DNA from: a virus
Strand: one strand, 5' to 3'
DNA: 31,797 nt
IMG/VR virus record: IMGVR_UViG_3300027983_000071
Location: 1 to 31,797 of that record
Shown: in pieces, positions 3,201-23,685 of the stretch
Numbering within the stretch: the stretch's first letter is position 1
Layout of the letters: every line of letters begins with the position of its first letter
The notes under the pieces: model-generated
The model's input: the letters and a program-made list of their open reading frames with translations, nothing else
What the model was told of the DNA's origin: nothing
Database searches by the model: none
Made by a program: the position numbers and the translations under genes

Positions 3201-5284
3201 GGAGACTCTATAATACTATAATTAACAACTACACAATCATCTATAGGTTGGTACCCATTTGTTATACTATTGTAAGTTAATTGTGTAGTATAAAAATCTG
3301 TGGTACCTGTAGGTATCCCATTAAATATACCATAATTATAATTAGTGAAATAGTTTTTAGTTATAGTATTTGCGGTAATCTTAACTGTGGGCTCCGAATT
3401 AAAGTTTGGGATGTAACACCTACTAAAGTAATTTAAATACTCGCTACCACCATCATACTCACCAACGTGAGGATTATTCCCATATAGTATTGTCGGTGAT
3501 CCTGACCCATAAGTTTCTCTATACCATCCACCACCTTTTTGGAAGTACATATCTGTTGTACCGTCTTCAACAAGTTCACCAGTTTCAGTGTCGATAAAAT
3601 CGGTTACCACTAATTGACCATCTATAGGTGGTAAAGGGTACCCATTTTCATCGTAAGGTATATTACTTAGAACATTTTCATTAACTTCACCTGTATAGAT
3701 ATATAATAATTTCTTAATTCCGTCCATATCTAATGGTTTATCCACCATTACAAGATATTCATTAAAATTAACTAAAGCTTCTGGAGCACCAATAAATCTA
3801 AATAAAAATTCTACTGCTTTTCTCGTTCCCTTACTTTTCCATAACCAACCTATATTAAGTATTAATCTTCTGTATAACTCAATATCTATTTGTTCTTGAG
3901 TGTAATTAACTGAAGTACCACTAAATTGTCCGGACCCATTACTAGGTAATAATAACTTATTAAATGTCGTACTTGTTACGAATGTAATAGGGTCCAAACC
4001 TAACATGTGAGATAAATCTTTCACTAAAGAATCTGGAACATTATCTTTTTTATTATAAGTTACTACATGTGCAAATTTAATACCATTAATATATTTTTTA
4101 ACTTCATCAAACTCAACACCATATATTCTAAGTAATTTAGTCGCCTTTTCACCGTTCAATGTTAAGTCATCACCATCACCTCTAGGGACAGTATCAAAAC
4201 TATTTATTGCTTCAGTAGTATATTTTCTTATAATAATATCAGTTTTAGTTTGATCTAAATTAATTCCAATATTATTAATTTTATCCAAATATGTTAAGTA
4301 AAAACTATCAAAGAAATTTAAATTATACCCATCTTCAAGTATTGGGAATAATAATGTTTCCGAACTAGTTAACATTACACCATCATCTGTAGCATTTGTA
4401 GAAATGATTATTGATTTATAAGGTGGGTTTGTCTCCCTAGTTAAGATATTAGTTTGAAAGTTATTAAGTGAACTAAAAAAACCTTCAATTTCAGTTTCAT
4501 TAGGTTTAATGAAATATGGTATAGAAGCATCCACATTTGTAAATAAAAACGATAGTGTCGGAATATATATTCCAGTTAATTCAGGAAAGGGGTTTCCATC
4601 AACAACTAACACTAAATCTGAATTAGTTGTTTGAGATGCTGGTGTTATATTTTTTATGTTTTTACTTATACCATTATGTTCTATAACATATGAACTATAA
4701 TTTACAGTAAAATTTCTAAGTTTGTTTGAAGTGTCTACACTAGGTGTATATTGGAAATCTAAAGTATATTTAATCCCATATGGGTTAACGAAAAACCTAC
4801 TATTAACAGTAAATGTGGACTCATCTCTGGAGATGTCATAAACATAATTAGTGATATTGTTACCAGTTACACTACCAACCTTATCATCTACGTAGATTGC
4901 TGCTGGCCATTTATCTTGTGCTTGTAGTAACGATGATCTAACCAACTCCTCAGCAGAACCATACCAAATATAACTCAGAGGATTTGTTAAATCTAAGTTC
5001 AATTTAGTTTTAATATTTTTTTGTATTGTTTGTTCTGTAGAATTCGTAACTATGTCATCCAAACAATATAGTTTTGACTTTGTACCTTGTTTAAATAGTA
5101 TGTTTGGTTTAGGGTCTAAATTAACATCTATCGAAAAGTTTCCGTTGGTAAAAAGCGTAGTACCACCTTCACTAGTAAGTTGTAAACCTACTAAATCAGG
5201 ACTAAAATTTCTGTATTCAATGTTGTCATTGAAAAATATCCTTTTTGCGTATCCCGCAATTTTTATTTTATTATTTTCAGCCAT
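1..5284 (-). CDS. Giant tail/adsorption structural protein, 3' end beyond window
   Basis: An open frame begins at ATG 5284 and reads without a stop to the left edge, about 1761 codons, so the C-terminus is missing. I checked the frame at both ends and in the middle. It starts 5 bases after the preceding gene's stop and lies last in the visible tail operon. Residues about 478-512 contain GTRKAVEFLFRFIGAPEAL, a pattern resembling the conserved segment of P2 gpI-like baseplate proteins (weak resemblance). From about residue 800 to the edge, vicinal-cysteine modules recur (SCCTTLGY, ECCAWYGY, DCCNAIGG, DCCTKSVLGF, DCCPTPGNIGF). Residues about 1380-1665 are charged and heptad-like, suggesting coiled coil. 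The last visible part is a glycine/proline-rich repeat. Size, repeats and position suggest a baseplate-attached fibre or host-contact protein; this is inference. The family was not recognised. Confidence 0.85.
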   Translation of the reverse strand, partial: MAENNKIKIAGYAKRIFFNDNIEYRNFSPDLVGLQLTSEGGTTLFTNGNFSIDVNLDPKPNILFKQGTKSKLYCLDDIVTNSTEQTIQKNIKTKLNLDLTNPLSYIWYGSAEELVRSSLLQAQDKWPAAIYVDDKVGSVTGNNITNYVYDISRDESTFTVNSRFFVNPYGIKYTLDFQYTPSVDTSNKLRNFTVNYSSYVIEHNGISKNIKNITPASQTTNSDLVLVVDGNPFPELTGIYIPTLSFLFTNVDASIPYFIKPNETEIEGFFSSLNNFQTNILTRETNPPYKSIIISTNATDDGVMLTSSETLLFPILEDGYNLNFFDSFYLTYLDKINNIGINLDQTKTDIIIRKYTTEAINSFDTVPRGDGDDLTLNGEKATKLLRIYGVEFDEVKKYINGIKFAHVVTYNKKDNVPDSLVKDLSHMLGLDPITFVTSTTFNKLLLPSNGSGQFSGTSVNYTQEQIDIELYRRLILNIGWLWKSKGTRKAVEFLFRFIGAPEALVNFNEYLVMVDKPLDMDGIKKLLYIYTGEVNENVLSNIPYDENGYPLPPIDGQLVVTDFIDTETGELVEDGTTDMYFQKGGGWYRETYGSGSPTILYGNNPHVGEYDGGSEYLNYFSRCYIPNFNSEPTVKITANTITKNYFTNYNYGIFNGIPTGTTDFYTTQLTYNSITNGYQPIDDCVVVNYSIIESPLQNDGKTTFQQQYAVANQEYLDFLLKIEVDSYLQYSPEWQVIKNNYELAQNNCLLEVSTENCDSNNTLEICISELDIDIKPFNCDTLSAVTDCSPFLYYVDDTGTKVTFDEFGSCCTTLGYTHVPYINESGIKSEYCSKLAPCVGTPLSQLENGVVVFQMANNTIPTNIYTLFNQKCVQSINDVSQTESSYFSGIPNINSFQEYIDQINENQILTGLFYELFTFVDCPESDSLSTTIISSPECCAWYGYDYQVINSSDDKQYIVCVENGGQESPELVINSLNPLFPIVNISANTIYNEYQNPAGDIVSYFSTNMFKDCFDESVILLGPDTNSNSLFITPNALFSSTTLNIPSEWKVNTIDQYGRISFTPKDPFYDFILDWNSNGQLATLYKEVADFYNYTFGQFTFNCDGILIPYYNSGTFIITPPDVITAAVDSTRIGCDDINNVSVTFASEKWQGFRLPELDDCSCTIDFSFDYMLKYTAENLMECVKKDPCNPSIFSDVSLNNLNCRNFITFTSNEEDPTDPLSLINNFNSETSSSEEYVIWQNNNCIIEPSTDCCNAIGGNVVSLNEWASNNQTWVNFIYDQYQSIVDGEIIGGVPVQLIDYITNLNTTFNSLTTTLNGCYSIPTSLFGSCDINYSEYIQTQNICSLDVPLECGLWTNTLSNYRLLIGAIENIISEFNKNCGRPTITNLDGTISDGDKTLVNHKNEIATKELSIILKENTLKIELKNELSGLLVKRAGLDVKINERADKIKEKESDNQVISKSTTEINTNLDCTIYDVKIKELDNFNYNNFCTLQVYGTISSTKLNKNDEFNNCVSVQKLKNENEKIIYNDLLKNCQTSNGLQGKLVKAKFENDGNLITTLEKEVFITQTRINLLTQRGSEFIEPDSSLQKSVLQSNNIVNTINRTAELLNTTTENITNSEGNLSLSDSQKIQLNIIFVKNESKISSLTSEMGELESEKNENISKSAIIGTIGGTKRCPTPGNIGFGQSTNPIGQITFNGIPLGIDCCTKSVLGFNVEWVGNGCYPKGFISPNGDVPPNGDVDCCPTPGNIGFGQSANPIGQ
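63..96 (-). repeat. Short tandem 18-bp repeat inside the giant gene
   Basis: The 16-base unit acatcaccattaggtg occurs at 63-78 and 81-96, a period of 18 bases or six codons. It encodes an SPNGDVPPNGDV-type run, a flexible proline/glycine linker between cysteine modules of the giant protein. Confidence 0.8.
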
Positions 5285-20228: not shown

Positions 20229-20906
20229 TTAATTAATTTCACAAGAACCCCCTGAACACGCTAATTCACCACTTAATGTTGTGTTATCATCTGATTCCAC
20301 AATTTGGGATAAGTCAATGTTATTTAAATGTTTCACCATTTCGTTATACACTTCTTCCGTAATATCTTCAAAAGGTGCTTGAGTATATGTCCCACCATTA
20401 TATGGTAATACAGATAAACCATTATAATGTTCTTTGTTAGTCCACATCCATTCACCAGATAAATCCCAATCTTCATCTTTTAAAGATATAGTTGCTGAAA
20501 CGTTATGTGTATTGGAACCATTTCTATGTCCACTCTTTACCCATTCCGTTGCTACCTTCTTAACTCTTTCCAAAAGGTCGAAAGGTGATTCAGTTCTTAA
20601 TATAGAACCTTTTGGTGATTTTTGTGGGATAGTGATAATTGCTGTATCATGAGCCCTAAAGTAATCATCCTCTAACAACTCAGGGTGATGAACAATTAAA
20701 TGTTTATATATTGATTCATTTTTCCCCACTCTAATTCTTCTTATGTAGTAGTCATTGTGCCACGCATGTATCCCTGAAGATGTACCTAATGTTAAAGATG
20801 TAGTATTATGTGACACAGTACCATTACCCATCTGATACACAGGGTTATTTTCAACTTCAATGTCTACAGTAAACGATTGTGTTAATTCTTTTTTCTTTAT
20901 TTTCAT
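20229..20906 (-). CDS. nrdJ: Class II ribonucleotide reductase, C-terminal fragment fused to a C-intein (225 aa)
   Basis: Residues 1-34 are the C-terminal half of a split intein: basic start MKIKKKEL, block F FTVDIEVENNPVYQM and block G NGTVSHN, then Thr+1. Residues 35-225 continue the reductase exactly where the upstream gene stops: TTSLTLGTSSGIHAWHNDYY and IRRIRVGKNESI are typical of the adenosylcobalamin-dependent RTPR family. The C-terminus carries C217-x4-C222 (ACSGGSCEIN), the swinging redox pair of this family with the same spacing as C731/C736 of the Lactobacillus leichmannii enzyme. The gene lies 43 bases after its partner and in another frame, so a working enzyme requires protein trans-splicing. 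The 191 extein residues cannot form an active site alone. Confidence 0.93.
   Translation of the reverse strand: MKIKKKELTQSFTVDIEVENNPVYQMGNGTVSHNTTSLTLGTSSGIHAWHNDYYIRRIRVGKNESIYKHLIVHHPELLEDDYFRAHDTAIITIPQKSPKGSILRTESPFDLLERVKKVATEWVKSGHRNGSNTHNVSATISLKDEDWDLSGEWMWTNKEHYNGLSVLPYNGGTYTQAPFEDITEEVYNEMVKHLNNIDLSQIVESDDNTTLSGELACSGGSCEIN
20805..20906 (-). other. C-intein half (34 aa) of the split intein
   Basis: Covers residues 1-34 of the C-terminal reductase gene. It ends in the canonical His-Asn pair and is followed by Thr as the +1 nucleophile. The first ten residues contain five lysines, complementary to the acidic end of the N-half. The 34-residue length is typical of natural C-inteins. 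Confidence 0.9.
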
Positions 20907-20949
20907 TTTATTATGTTTTTTAATTTACTTTTTATTTGTTTACCATTCA

Positions 20950-23685
20950 CTATACCATCTGATTTAATAAAATATTTTCTTCACAATATAACCATTCATC
21001 ATCTTCCGTTATATCAATAGCTTGTTTCCAATTACCATCAGACATCATAAATTTATGATGCGGTGTACATTCAATGATACTATCATCTTCCATTGTGAAT
21101 TTCACACTTTCCTCAAACCCATTCACGAATAACTTAGTTATTAAATTCTCATTACCATTTTCATCAAAAACTTTTATATCGGTTTTAACATCGTACCATT
21201 CCCTATACACATCTAAATGATTATCTAAATTAACACCATTTATCTTAAAAATATCAAATAAACTAATATTTCCATTATTAGTCCTAATAACCGTAGATGG
21301 TATCTGACAACCCGCAGGTTTTACAGTTGTACACCTAGCCGATTTATTAATATCTATAAGTTTAGCGACTCTACTATTTTCTCTCTTTACCACATCTGCT
21401 GATTTTTCTAAATCATAACCTAATACAACTCCACTTCCGATTCCCGTCATAGATACACCGATTAGAGCGTCTTTCTCTGTTGTTTCTTGCCAGATCTCTC
21501 TTAAGTAATGAAACCCTGTGTAACCAGCTTGTAACGTCCCTATGAAGGCTGCAGCTTTAACTCTTTCATTCAAATCTTCTTGTGATTCAATATTCGAAAC
21601 ATTAACTTCACATAGGTTACAGAATTGAAATGGTCTTAGTGCGATTTCACAACAATTTCCAGTAACTACTTTTGATAGTTGGAAACAATGTGTTTCATCT
21701 TGCACTGAAATATCCCAAACATCCTCATAAATATCTGTTTCTTCTACAGATATAACTTCAACCTGATTATTATCCTGTGTATTATTAAATTTGTAGTTAT
21801 CTAGTTCATCTTGTTTGTATTGTACTGACAATTTAAAAATATTTATAAATTGTTTTATTGATTGATTCTCGTTAATTCTTAAATCATATCTGTCAAATAT
21901 CTTATCATTTAACGTTGACGTACTGTGTCTAATGGTTGTTTTAATACCGTAGAACCCTAATAATTCAGACACATCACTAAGTAACGACCTGTGCTTGGAG
22001 GTTAATATTACCCTTTTTTTACTTTTTGATATATGACCATCTGATGAGAATAAACCATCAATAATACCCTTTCTATATTCTTCAGAACCATTCACCCACA
22101 CAGCCTTAGGTAACCCAACATTTTTATCGACAATACCAAATTGTTTTATATAATTGTCGACTTGTATGTTATTTATTGACACTTCTTTGGTTTTTGTTTC
22201 AATTAGAACTTGTGTCATAGTCTCTTCAAAGTCTTCAAAGGTTGGTTTTAACCTACGTCTAAAAGAACCATTAAAAGATGGTACATTTTCTTGGATTGTA
22301 CTTATTAGTAGTTCTGATATATTGGATTCATCATCCTTATCACTTACAATCATACCGTACTCCGAATGTTCCTTTCTATTAGATACCCAACCATCACCTA
22401 TAATCCAACCAGATAAAAACCCATCATTATACGTACCTAAATCACCGTCAAACATTTTTGTTTCTCTCAGGAATGGTAATTTACTACCAACTTTAATAGA
22501 TGGTGTATTAACTTTAGTATACTGTACTCCGTCCCACACAGGCCATTCATGTTCTTTTGTCGAAAAGTATTCAGTCTTATCTTTCAATGTTAACTTATAT
22601 AATTTTTGGTTTTTTCCAGATAACCAACATTTAGCGTTACTAATTTCACCATTTAAGTTTTTAACTTCAAATTCTTTACCATCAAGTTCTTCAATCGGGT
22701 ATACTCCGTTTGTGGTGATAACCTTAGTACCTTTTCTCAATGATGGATTCGTACCCCAGGACTTATCATTAGATAAATAAATTCCTGGTTCACCCGCTCC
22801 TGACAATTCAATTCTCTTCCATAACCCCATAAAAAATTCTTTAGTGATTTTATGTCTAATAAGAACTGCTGAATTATTAGCTCTACCTCTTTGTGGGTTA
22901 TTTTCCCACCAGTCACCAGATTTACAAGAAATCATTTCATCGTCATCAGCACTAAATAATGATATTAAGGCTGCTCTACGAATACCACCAGCTAATACTG
23001 CGTCTGCAATATAACATATAATATCATGAGTTTCTAATGTTGTTAATTTTTCACCATCAGTTTTATTTTCTAATACACCAGTAATTTTAATGATACACTC
23101 TTTCAATGGTTGTGGTCCTGGCGCTTTACCACCAGAAGTAACTAACCTAGCACCTTTTGCTCTAATGTCGGAAAAATCAAATTCAATTTTAGAACTTCTT
23201 TTTTCTCCGATGTAAGACTTCATAAGTACTTTTATTGAGTCTGACCAACCTTCGATTGAGTCTCCGATTAAAAACCTTCTCTTTCTTTTATTGTGTGGTT
23301 TGTTTACCGGTAGTAATTTATCTACATTATGTTTTTGTACTGAATATCCTACACCTGTACCACCAAGTAGTAAAAACATTGTCTCTGAGAACGCATCTAC
23401 ATCATCAATAGGTAAGAACGCACAGTTATACACTCTGTTCGGAGAGATATCAATGGGTTTACCCGCAAATTGCATTGACCTCATCGATGGTAACACTTTT
23501 TTATCATATACAAACTGATACTTTTCTTCTATCTCGTCTTTTAATTCAGGATACTTCCTAATGTGCATATTCATATTCCTTGTAACCAATTCATCCCAAG
23601 TTTCTCTCCTATTTAATTCTGGAATATACTTTGCGTATTTCATATAAACCGTTATATCTGATAATATTTTGTTTGAAATATCCAT
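20950..23685 (-). CDS. nrdJ: Class II ribonucleotide reductase, N-terminal part with one full intein and an N-intein (911 aa)
   Basis: Makes deoxyribonucleotides with adenosylcobalamin as radical source. Residues 1-314 are the first extein: RRETWDELVTRNMNMHIRKY, VLPSMRSMQFAG, YNCAFLPIDD with active-site C88, and LLLGGTGVGYSVQ, all typical of monomeric RTPR enzymes. Residues 315-677 are a complete intein. Residues 678-792 are the second extein, with NP-CCE joining N313-P314 to catalytic C678, and C689 eleven residues later (the spacing of C408/C419 in L. leichmannii). It ends TTVKPAG. Residues 793-911 are an N-intein followed by TAG. After splicing and joining to the 225-aa partner the enzyme would have about 620 residues (314+115+191). 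It starts at ATG 23685 after a 107-base leader with A-rich sequence and no Shine-Dalgarno motif. Confidence 0.94.
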   Translation of the reverse strand: MDISNKILSDITVYMKYAKYIPELNRRETWDELVTRNMNMHIRKYPELKDEIEEKYQFVYDKKVLPSMRSMQFAGKPIDISPNRVYNCAFLPIDDVDAFSETMFLLLGGTGVGYSVQKHNVDKLLPVNKPHNKRKRRFLIGDSIEGWSDSIKVLMKSYIGEKRSSKIEFDFSDIRAKGARLVTSGGKAPGPQPLKECIIKITGVLENKTDGEKLTTLETHDIICYIADAVLAGGIRRAALISLFSADDDEMISCKSGDWWENNPQRGRANNSAVLIRHKITKEFFMGLWKRIELSGAGEPGIYLSNDKSWGTNPSLRKGTKVITTNGVYPIEELDGKEFEVKNLNGEISNAKCWLSGKNQKLYKLTLKDKTEYFSTKEHEWPVWDGVQYTKVNTPSIKVGSKLPFLRETKMFDGDLGTYNDGFLSGWIIGDGWVSNRKEHSEYGMIVSDKDDESNISELLISTIQENVPSFNGSFRRRLKPTFEDFEETMTQVLIETKTKEVSINNIQVDNYIKQFGIVDKNVGLPKAVWVNGSEEYRKGIIDGLFSSDGHISKSKKRVILTSKHRSLLSDVSELLGFYGIKTTIRHSTSTLNDKIFDRYDLRINENQSIKQFINIFKLSVQYKQDELDNYKFNNTQDNNQVEVISVEETDIYEDVWDISVQDETHCFQLSKVVTGNCCEIALRPFQFCNLCEVNVSNIESQEDLNERVKAAAFIGTLQAGYTGFHYLREIWQETTEKDALIGVSMTGIGSGVVLGYDLEKSADVVKRENSRVAKLIDINKSARCTTVKPAGCQIPSTVIRTNNGNISLFDIFKINGVNLDNHLDVYREWYDVKTDIKVFDENGNENLITKLFVNGFEESVKFTMEDDSIIECTPHHKFMMSDGNWKQAIDITEDDEWLYCEENILLNQMV
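20953..21309 (-). other. N-intein half (119 aa) of the split intein
   Basis: Starts at Cys793 of the reductase, after KPAG. Block A is CQIPSTVIRTNNGNISLFDI; block B is DDSIIECTPHHKFMM with the T-x-x-H residues at 874 and 877. It ends ITEDDEWLYCEENILLNQMV, strongly acidic. The split falls between blocks B and F, where a homing endonuclease sits in full-length inteins. No endonuclease remains. Confidence 0.9.
21655..22743 (-). other. Contiguous intein with LAGLIDADG-type endonuclease (363 aa)
   Basis: Residues 315-677 of the reductase. It begins with Ser (SLRKGTKVITTNGVYPIEEL, block A) instead of the usual Cys. Block B is TEYFSTKEHEWPVW with T376 and H379. Two endonuclease motifs are seen: FLSGWIIGDGWVS at about 423-435 and GIIDGLFSSDGHIS at about 540-553, both with the acidic residue kept, so cleavage activity is plausible. 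Block F is EDVWDISVQDETHCFQL and block G SKVVTGN, where the penultimate His is replaced by Gly. The +1 residue is the reductase thiyl-radical Cys678. Confidence 0.9.

What the first reader, a model, noticed from the sequence alone, without database searches (positions are those of the whole stretch)
20805..21309. Naturally split intein in a phage class II ribonucleotide reductase
The nrdJ product is broken inside an intein. The N-half (119 aa, starting C793 after KPAG) ends one gene; the C-half (34 aa, ending HN) begins the next, in another frame, and is followed by Thr and the rest of the reductase. Blocks A, B, F and G are all present and the break lies where the endonuclease normally sits. 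The N-half ends acidic (TEDDEWLYCEE) and the C-half starts basic (MKIKKKE), as in fast natural split inteins. Known split inteins from environmental phage-like reads include NrdJ-1, gp41-1 and IMPDH-1; NrdJ-1 is, as far as I recall, at a different reductase site. This PAG/T pair with Thr+1 may be new.
Basis: partly seen in the sequence, partly recalled or inferred. Interest (0 to 1): 0.88.

Follow-up and report, generated by a model that had tools for sequence, protein, structure and literature searches.

The report
Split intein in phage ribonucleotide reductase
A phage gene for making DNA building blocks is cut in two inside a self-splicing protein element, so the two protein halves must be joined after translation; relatives show that the cut was made around a selfish DNA-cutting gene that has since been deleted here, leaving only its tail.

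Summary
The class II ribonucleotide reductase (nrdJ) is encoded by two minus-strand ORFs (23685-20950 and 20906-20229). A 505-bp insert (21309-20805) separates the exteins at KPAG/T. It encodes a 119-aa intein N-half, a 43-nt gap and a 34-aa intein C-half in another frame. The split is not an assembly error: it recurs in at least nine distinct alleles with inserts of 467-1626 nt, while 75 of 80 close relatives have a scarless empty site. The intein evolves under purifying selection (dN/dS 0-0.1 in the closest comparisons).

This is a "fractured gene" (Dassa et al. 2009) that has lost its endonuclease. Close relatives carry an EDxHD/Vsr-type homing endonuclease gene in the gap. This window and its nearest relatives keep only its 3' tail, whose stop codon overlaps the C-half ATG (ATGA). 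One relative has its N-half fused in frame to that tail. The endonuclease-free intein is more alike between two phages than their flanking exteins are, which suggests it spread after losing its endonuclease.

It is a new member of a known kind. Splicing itself is inferred. Whether KPAG/T was already listed in 2009 could not be checked.

The parts
20950..23685 (-). nrdJ gene part A (911 aa): N-exteins, a contiguous intein and the N-half of the split intein
   Evidence: TIGR02505 RTPR E=2e-54, PF21995; 1l1l hit E=7e-23
21310..21654 (-). extein segment between the two inteins (aa 678-792), ends TTVKPAG
   Evidence: matches empty-site relatives without a gap
20953..21309 (-). N-half of the split intein (aa 793-911, 119 aa), C1, TxxH block B
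   Evidence: TIGR01445 E=4e-10; 84% identical in L002, 95% in L083, 100% in L082
20907..20949 (-). 43-nt gap between N-half stop and C-half start
20903..20950 (-). remnant of the homing endonuclease 3' end in the third frame (GTG...VNGKQIKSKLKNIIK*; TGA overlaps the C-half ATG as ATGA)
   Evidence: 48-nt identity to L083 36/48 and to intact-endonuclease L010 28/48, shuffle p<=0.0022; L083 links to the HMM-significant relic in L028 (E=3e-7)
20805..20906 (-). C-half of the split intein (34 aa), blocks F and G, ends SHN, followed by T+1
   Evidence: dN/dS 0.03 against L002
20229..20906 (-). nrdJ gene part B (225 aa): C-half intein plus 191-aa C-extein ending ACSGGSCEIN
   Evidence: TIGR02505 positions 518-723, E=3e-13
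21655..22743 (-). second, contiguous intein in the same gene (363 aa, Ser1, LAGLIDADG endonuclease) at NP/CCEI
   Evidence: PF14528 E=2.8e-15, PF14890; boundaries

Best explanation
The two ORFs are translated separately. The intein halves (119 and 34 aa) find each other, fold into one Hint domain and join KPAG to TTSL by trans-splicing (class 1 chemistry: C1, TxxH, HN, Thr+1), giving an intact class II RNR. The contiguous LAGLIDADG intein upstream splices out in cis. The split arose as a fractured gene: a free-standing EDxHD/Vsr-type homing endonuclease gene sat between the halves and overlapped the start of the C-half. In this lineage the endonuclease was deleted, leaving its 3' tail and the ATGA overlap. 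Shown here: anatomy, conservation, purifying selection, empty sites, endonuclease-bearing relatives and relic homology. Inferred: trans-splicing itself, the working enzyme, and translational coupling.
For: Anatomy. Same split in other contigs L082/L083/L002/L010/L028/L087/L091/L092/L029/L104/L110. Scarless empty site in 75 of 80 relatives. dN/dS 0.08-0.09 (N-half) and 0-0.03 (C-half) against L083 and L002, with C-extein 0.05-0.06. Endonuclease ORF in the gap of L010, L085, L091, L092, L029, L103, L104 and L110. Relics: L028 tail hits the endonuclease HMM at E=3e-7; WIN-L083-L028/L087-L010 nucleotide chain; L087 N-half fused in frame to the tail. Endonuclease fold: Vsr and I-Bth0305I are the top three PDB hits; Vsr by sequence profile, E=0.006. 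N-half AF2 model (pLDDT 82): best PDB match Npu DnaE split intein.
Against: No splicing experiment exists. The WIN relic alone (about 15 codons) is not significant against the endonuclease HMM (E=1.3); its identity rests on intermediates. The block F His is replaced by Pro. The N-half Foldseek match has low TM (0.36), partly because the C-half is missing. Descent of all relic copies from one loss event is not supported (65/48).
Confidence: 0.88

Rival explanations
1. The intein is contiguous and the break is an assembly or sequencing error.
For: Metagenomic contig; reads could not be inspected. L083 does show a 1-nt frameshift elsewhere in nrdJ.
Against: The two frames do not meet (25-nt gap), so at least two errors would be needed. 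L082 is identical over 5,153 nt, and L083, L002, L087 and L028 show their own different gaps; relatives hold a whole endonuclease gene there.
Confidence: 0.02
2. The nrdJ gene is dead or dying: the halves no longer splice and the phage lives without this RNR.
For: Split genes can decay; the endonuclease is lost and the N-half carries an unconserved tail (NILLNQMV). Phage nrdA pseudogenes are known (PMC3653736).
Against: N-half, C-half and both exteins all show purifying selection. Splicing residues and the C-terminal Cys pair are kept, and the joined exteins align with empty-site NrdJ without a gap.
Confidence: 0.06
3. The split arose by a simple gene break without any endonuclease, and endonucleases invaded other copies later.
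For: Relic clade monophyly is weak and the WIN relic is short. HEN-free split inteins such as cyanobacterial DnaE exist (known families).
Against: Outgroup inteins at this site (L091, L092, L103, L029, L104, L110) carry the endonuclease. The L028 relic is significant, L087 is an in-frame fusion to the tail, and the ATGA overlap is kept.
Confidence: 0.08
4. The two halves work as separate subunits without splicing, like a phage RNR that an endonuclease insertion cut into two working peptides.
For: Genes-in-pieces RNRs that work as two peptides are published (reference 8 of PMC10448857).
Against: Both halves keep conserved intein domains under purifying selection, with C1, TxxH and HN intact; subunits would not need them.
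Confidence: 0.03

Closest known systems
Fractured genes with split inteins and free-standing EDxHD/Vsr homing endonuclease (Dassa et al. 2009 NAR 37:2560, cited in PMC3653736 and PMC12350094)
   Same: Host enzyme (including 2 nrdJ) broken by a split intein; relatives here carry the free-standing Vsr-like endonuclease in the gap
   Different: In the window the endonuclease is gone except for its 3' tail; site is KPAG/T. The 2009 paper itself could not be read
NrdJ-1 split intein (PDB 8ubs)
   Same: Split intein from a class II RNR; profile hit E=7e-7
   Different: Remembered site is NPC/SEI (memory); here KPAG/T with Thr+1. Only distant sequence similarity
Npu/Ssp DnaE split inteins
   Same: About 119/34 split at the canonical endonuclease position; best PDB sequence and fold match
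   Different: Cellular DnaE, distant genes (known family); this one sits in a phage with adjacent ORFs and an endonuclease remnant
Aeromonas phage Aes123 split polB with putative VSR endonuclease (JN377899)
   Same: N-intein half, Vsr endonuclease homologous to that of the relatives (26% identity), C-intein half, ORFs overlapping
   Different: DNA polymerase host gene; endonuclease still present

Membership tests
Class 1 split intein | C1, TxxH in block B, C-terminal HN, C/S/T at +1 | tested here: met
   C1, T82xxH85 and HN conserved in relatives; +1 is T
Class 1 split intein | Intein sequence/fold similarity on both halves | tested here: met
   TIGR01445 E=4e-10; N+C profile to DnaE E=5e-9, NrdJ-1 E=7e-7, gp41-1 E=2e-5; N-half fold to Npu DnaE E=9e-4
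Class 1 split intein | Two separate ORFs that cannot be read as one | tested here: met
   Frame gap; repeated in many contigs
Class 1 split intein | Trans-splicing activity | not testable with these tools
   needs protein experiments
Fractured gene (split intein plus free-standing endonuclease) | Conserved enzyme broken by the split intein at an otherwise empty site | tested here: met
   75 of 80 relatives empty
Fractured gene (split intein plus free-standing endonuclease) | Free-standing endonuclease ORF between the halves | tested here: not met
   Only a 3' relic in the window, so it is filed as a derivative of a fractured gene, not as one; intact ORF in L010, L091, L092, L029, L104, L110
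EDxHD/Vsr homing endonuclease (relatives only) | Vsr-like catalytic domain | tested here: met
   Vsr by profile E=0.006; Foldseek top hits Vsr and I-Bth0305I, probability 0.91-1.0 but E=0.06-1.2
NrdJ-1 allele | Same insertion site | tested here: inconclusive
   This insert is at KPAG/T. The NPC/SEI site of NrdJ-1 is recalled, not looked up, so the difference rests on memory
Class II RNR (NrdJ) | Similarity to AdoCbl-dependent RTPR in both ORFs | tested here: met
   TIGR02505 in both ORFs, below the curated whole-protein cut-off, probably because the gene is interrupted and divergent

The most novel reading that the evidence does not exclude
The site shows a full decay series of a fractured gene into an endonuclease-free split intein (intact endonuclease, long tail relic, short tail relic, tail fused in frame to the N-half with ATGA coupling), reached more than once. 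The endonuclease-free split intein is still passed between phages as a unit, so loss of the endonuclease did not end its mobility.
Probability: 0.5. Interest if true: 0.62.

Novelty: new member of a known kind. Interest (0 to 1): 0.5.

Why it matters
It offers a set of alleles at one site that show how permanent natural split inteins can form: an endonuclease gene opens the intein, then is deleted, leaving two adjacent genes. It also supplies a family of natural N/C pairs at a Thr+1 site for protein ligation tests, and a case for asking whether a split intein can spread without its own endonuclease.

Tried and rejected
A genome collection scan with the N-half alignment found no relatives among bacterial and archaeal genomes. 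The Thermus phage G20c hit is a different intein at the NP/C site, not one at KPxG/T. A direct HMM test of the WIN relic was not significant, so the relic claim was rested on nucleotide identity through L083, L087 and L028. phmmer with one endonuclease found nothing in the PDB; the profile did. The endonuclease AF2 model is only fair (pLDDT 65). Assembly error, single frameshift and pseudogene were considered and set aside. Dassa 2009 and Carvajal-Vallejos 2012 are not held.

Full report
Observation. The minus strand holds two consecutive ORFs, 23685-20950 (911 aa) and 20906-20229 (225 aa). Both match the adenosylcobalamin-dependent ribonucleoside-triphosphate reductase model TIGR02505 (E=2e-54; E=3e-13 for positions 518-723). 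Part A ends with an intein N-terminal region (TIGR01445, aa 795-880, E=4e-10). Part B begins with a 34-aa intein C-terminal region ending SHN, then Thr. The insert is exactly 505 bp (21309-20805). The N frame stops at 20950-20952 and the C frame opens only 25 nt later, so no single indel or single ribosomal frameshift can join them.

Not an artefact. In IMG/VR, 75 of the 80 nearest relatives of part B have KPAGTTSL or its like uninterrupted. The insert is found at the same codon in L082 (identical over 5,153 nt), L083, L002, L028, L087/L088, L010/L085/L086, L091, L092, L029, L103, L104, L106 and L110. Measured insert lengths run from 467 to 1626 nt, and the halves are separate ORFs in every complete case. 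C1, TxxH and HN are conserved. The intein N+C profile finds the DnaE, NrdJ-1 and gp41-1 split inteins among solved structures. An AlphaFold2 model of the N-half (pLDDT 82) has the Npu DnaE split intein as best PDB match, with a low TM-score, as may be expected for a half domain.

Selection. Against L083 and L002 the N-half shows dN/dS 0.08-0.09, the C-half 0-0.03 and the C-extein 0.05-0.06; the N-extein shows 0.04 (L083) and 0.17 (L002). The joined exteins align with empty-site NrdJ without a gap at the split-intein junction, and the C-terminal Cys pair (ACSGGSC) is present. This argues for a working, spliced reductase.

What sits in the gap. In L010, L085, L091, L092, L029, L103, L104, L106 and L110 the gap holds an endonuclease ORF (330-376 aa in those aligned) whose end overlaps or abuts the start of the C-half (L010: stop TGA within ATGA). 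Its C-terminal domain resembles Vsr by profile (E=0.006), and its fair-quality model has Vsr and the EDxHD homing endonuclease I-Bth0305I as the three best folds (weak E-values, high Foldseek probability). A scan with this protein returned many loci in which it lies between intein halves in helicase-like, DNA-polymerase-like and RNR genes (host genes other than RNR named by eye). In Aeromonas phage Aes123 a homologue is annotated as a putative VSR endonuclease between polB parts with N- and C-intein halves. This is the fractured-gene arrangement of Dassa et al. 2009, which reported 2 nrdJ and 7 nrdA cases (as cited in PMC3653736); an outgroup of the EDxHD/Vsr endonucleases is described in PMC12350094.

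The relic. In L028 the gap encodes QKNRGYIVITIWDTDWYSSKDRVKNKLKE, which hits the endonuclease HMM at E=3e-7 while the best of 600 shuffled frames gives 0.2. In L087 the N-half runs in frame into the same tail (DDDWHSNKDELKNKLKEQIQ*), and its stop overlaps the C-half ATG by ATGA. L083 has YFNKDEIKSKLKNIIK* and the window VNGKQIKSKLKNIIK*, both ending in the same ATGA overlap. Ungapped 48-nt identities are WIN-L083 36, L083-L087 35, L083-L028 34 and WIN-L010 28, shuffle p<=0.0022. The window relic alone is too short for the HMM (E=1.3). I conclude that the endonuclease was deleted. On the intein tree the endonuclease-bearing copies surround the relic copies, so loss is the simpler direction, but a single loss is not supported. 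Differing scars (L002, L028, L087, WIN/L083) suggest several deletions, or one followed by different erosion.

Spread. Between WIN and L083 the intein differs at 10 of 136 third positions in codons for the same residue, and the exteins at 56 of 175 (Fisher p=6e-8; fourfold sites only, p=0.002). Identity steps up at the insert boundaries. On the C-extein tree, WIN and L083 lie among empty alleles (L003-L009), far from L002, whose intein groups with theirs. Simplest reading: the intein, already without its endonuclease, moved between related phages by recombination or by an endonuclease acting in trans. The C-extein segment of L083 is short (73 codons), so this is a moderate inference.

Mechanism. 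Inferred: translation of part A, re-initiation or coupled start of part B, association of an acidic N-half (net -14) with a C-half whose first 12 residues are +3, then N-S shift at C1, transfer to Thr+1, Asn cyclisation and ligation. The block F His found in deeper relatives is Pro in this clade, so the speed cannot be foretold from fast split inteins.

Known or new. Kind: known. Member: new to the collections searched here; the KPxG/T site is used by a whole family of split inteins in phage NrdJ. I could not read the 2009 and 2012 papers, so I do not claim the site as new.

Noticed in passing
window 21655-22743 (-): The same nrdJ carries a second, contiguous 363-aa intein with a LAGLIDADG domain at NP/CCEI (Ser1). 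L083 and L004 instead have an unrelated intein, HNH-like by eye, one codon further (NPC/C).
   Followed up: partly
L029 ~3788-3847, L104 ~3325-3372, L110 ~3345-3402: Inverted repeats directly before the endonuclease start codon, with changed but still pairing stems; in L110 a TATAAATA sequence lies in the loop, like the late-expression control known for T4 homing endonucleases.
   Followed up: no
L167 and L175 (contigs of L028 and L087): These two phages lost the endonuclease in nrdJ but carry a homologue in a second fractured gene, apparently a DnaB-type helicase; it might act in trans.
   Followed up: no
L083 ~3898: A 1-nt frameshift interrupts the nrdJ N-extein; may be an assembly error.
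   Followed up: no
L110 1-3333: One nrdJ with at least two contiguous inteins plus the split one.
   Followed up: no
L098 316-1437: A contiguous mini-intein at the same KPSG/T site in another NrdJ lineage; a possible unsplit relative.
   Followed up: partly
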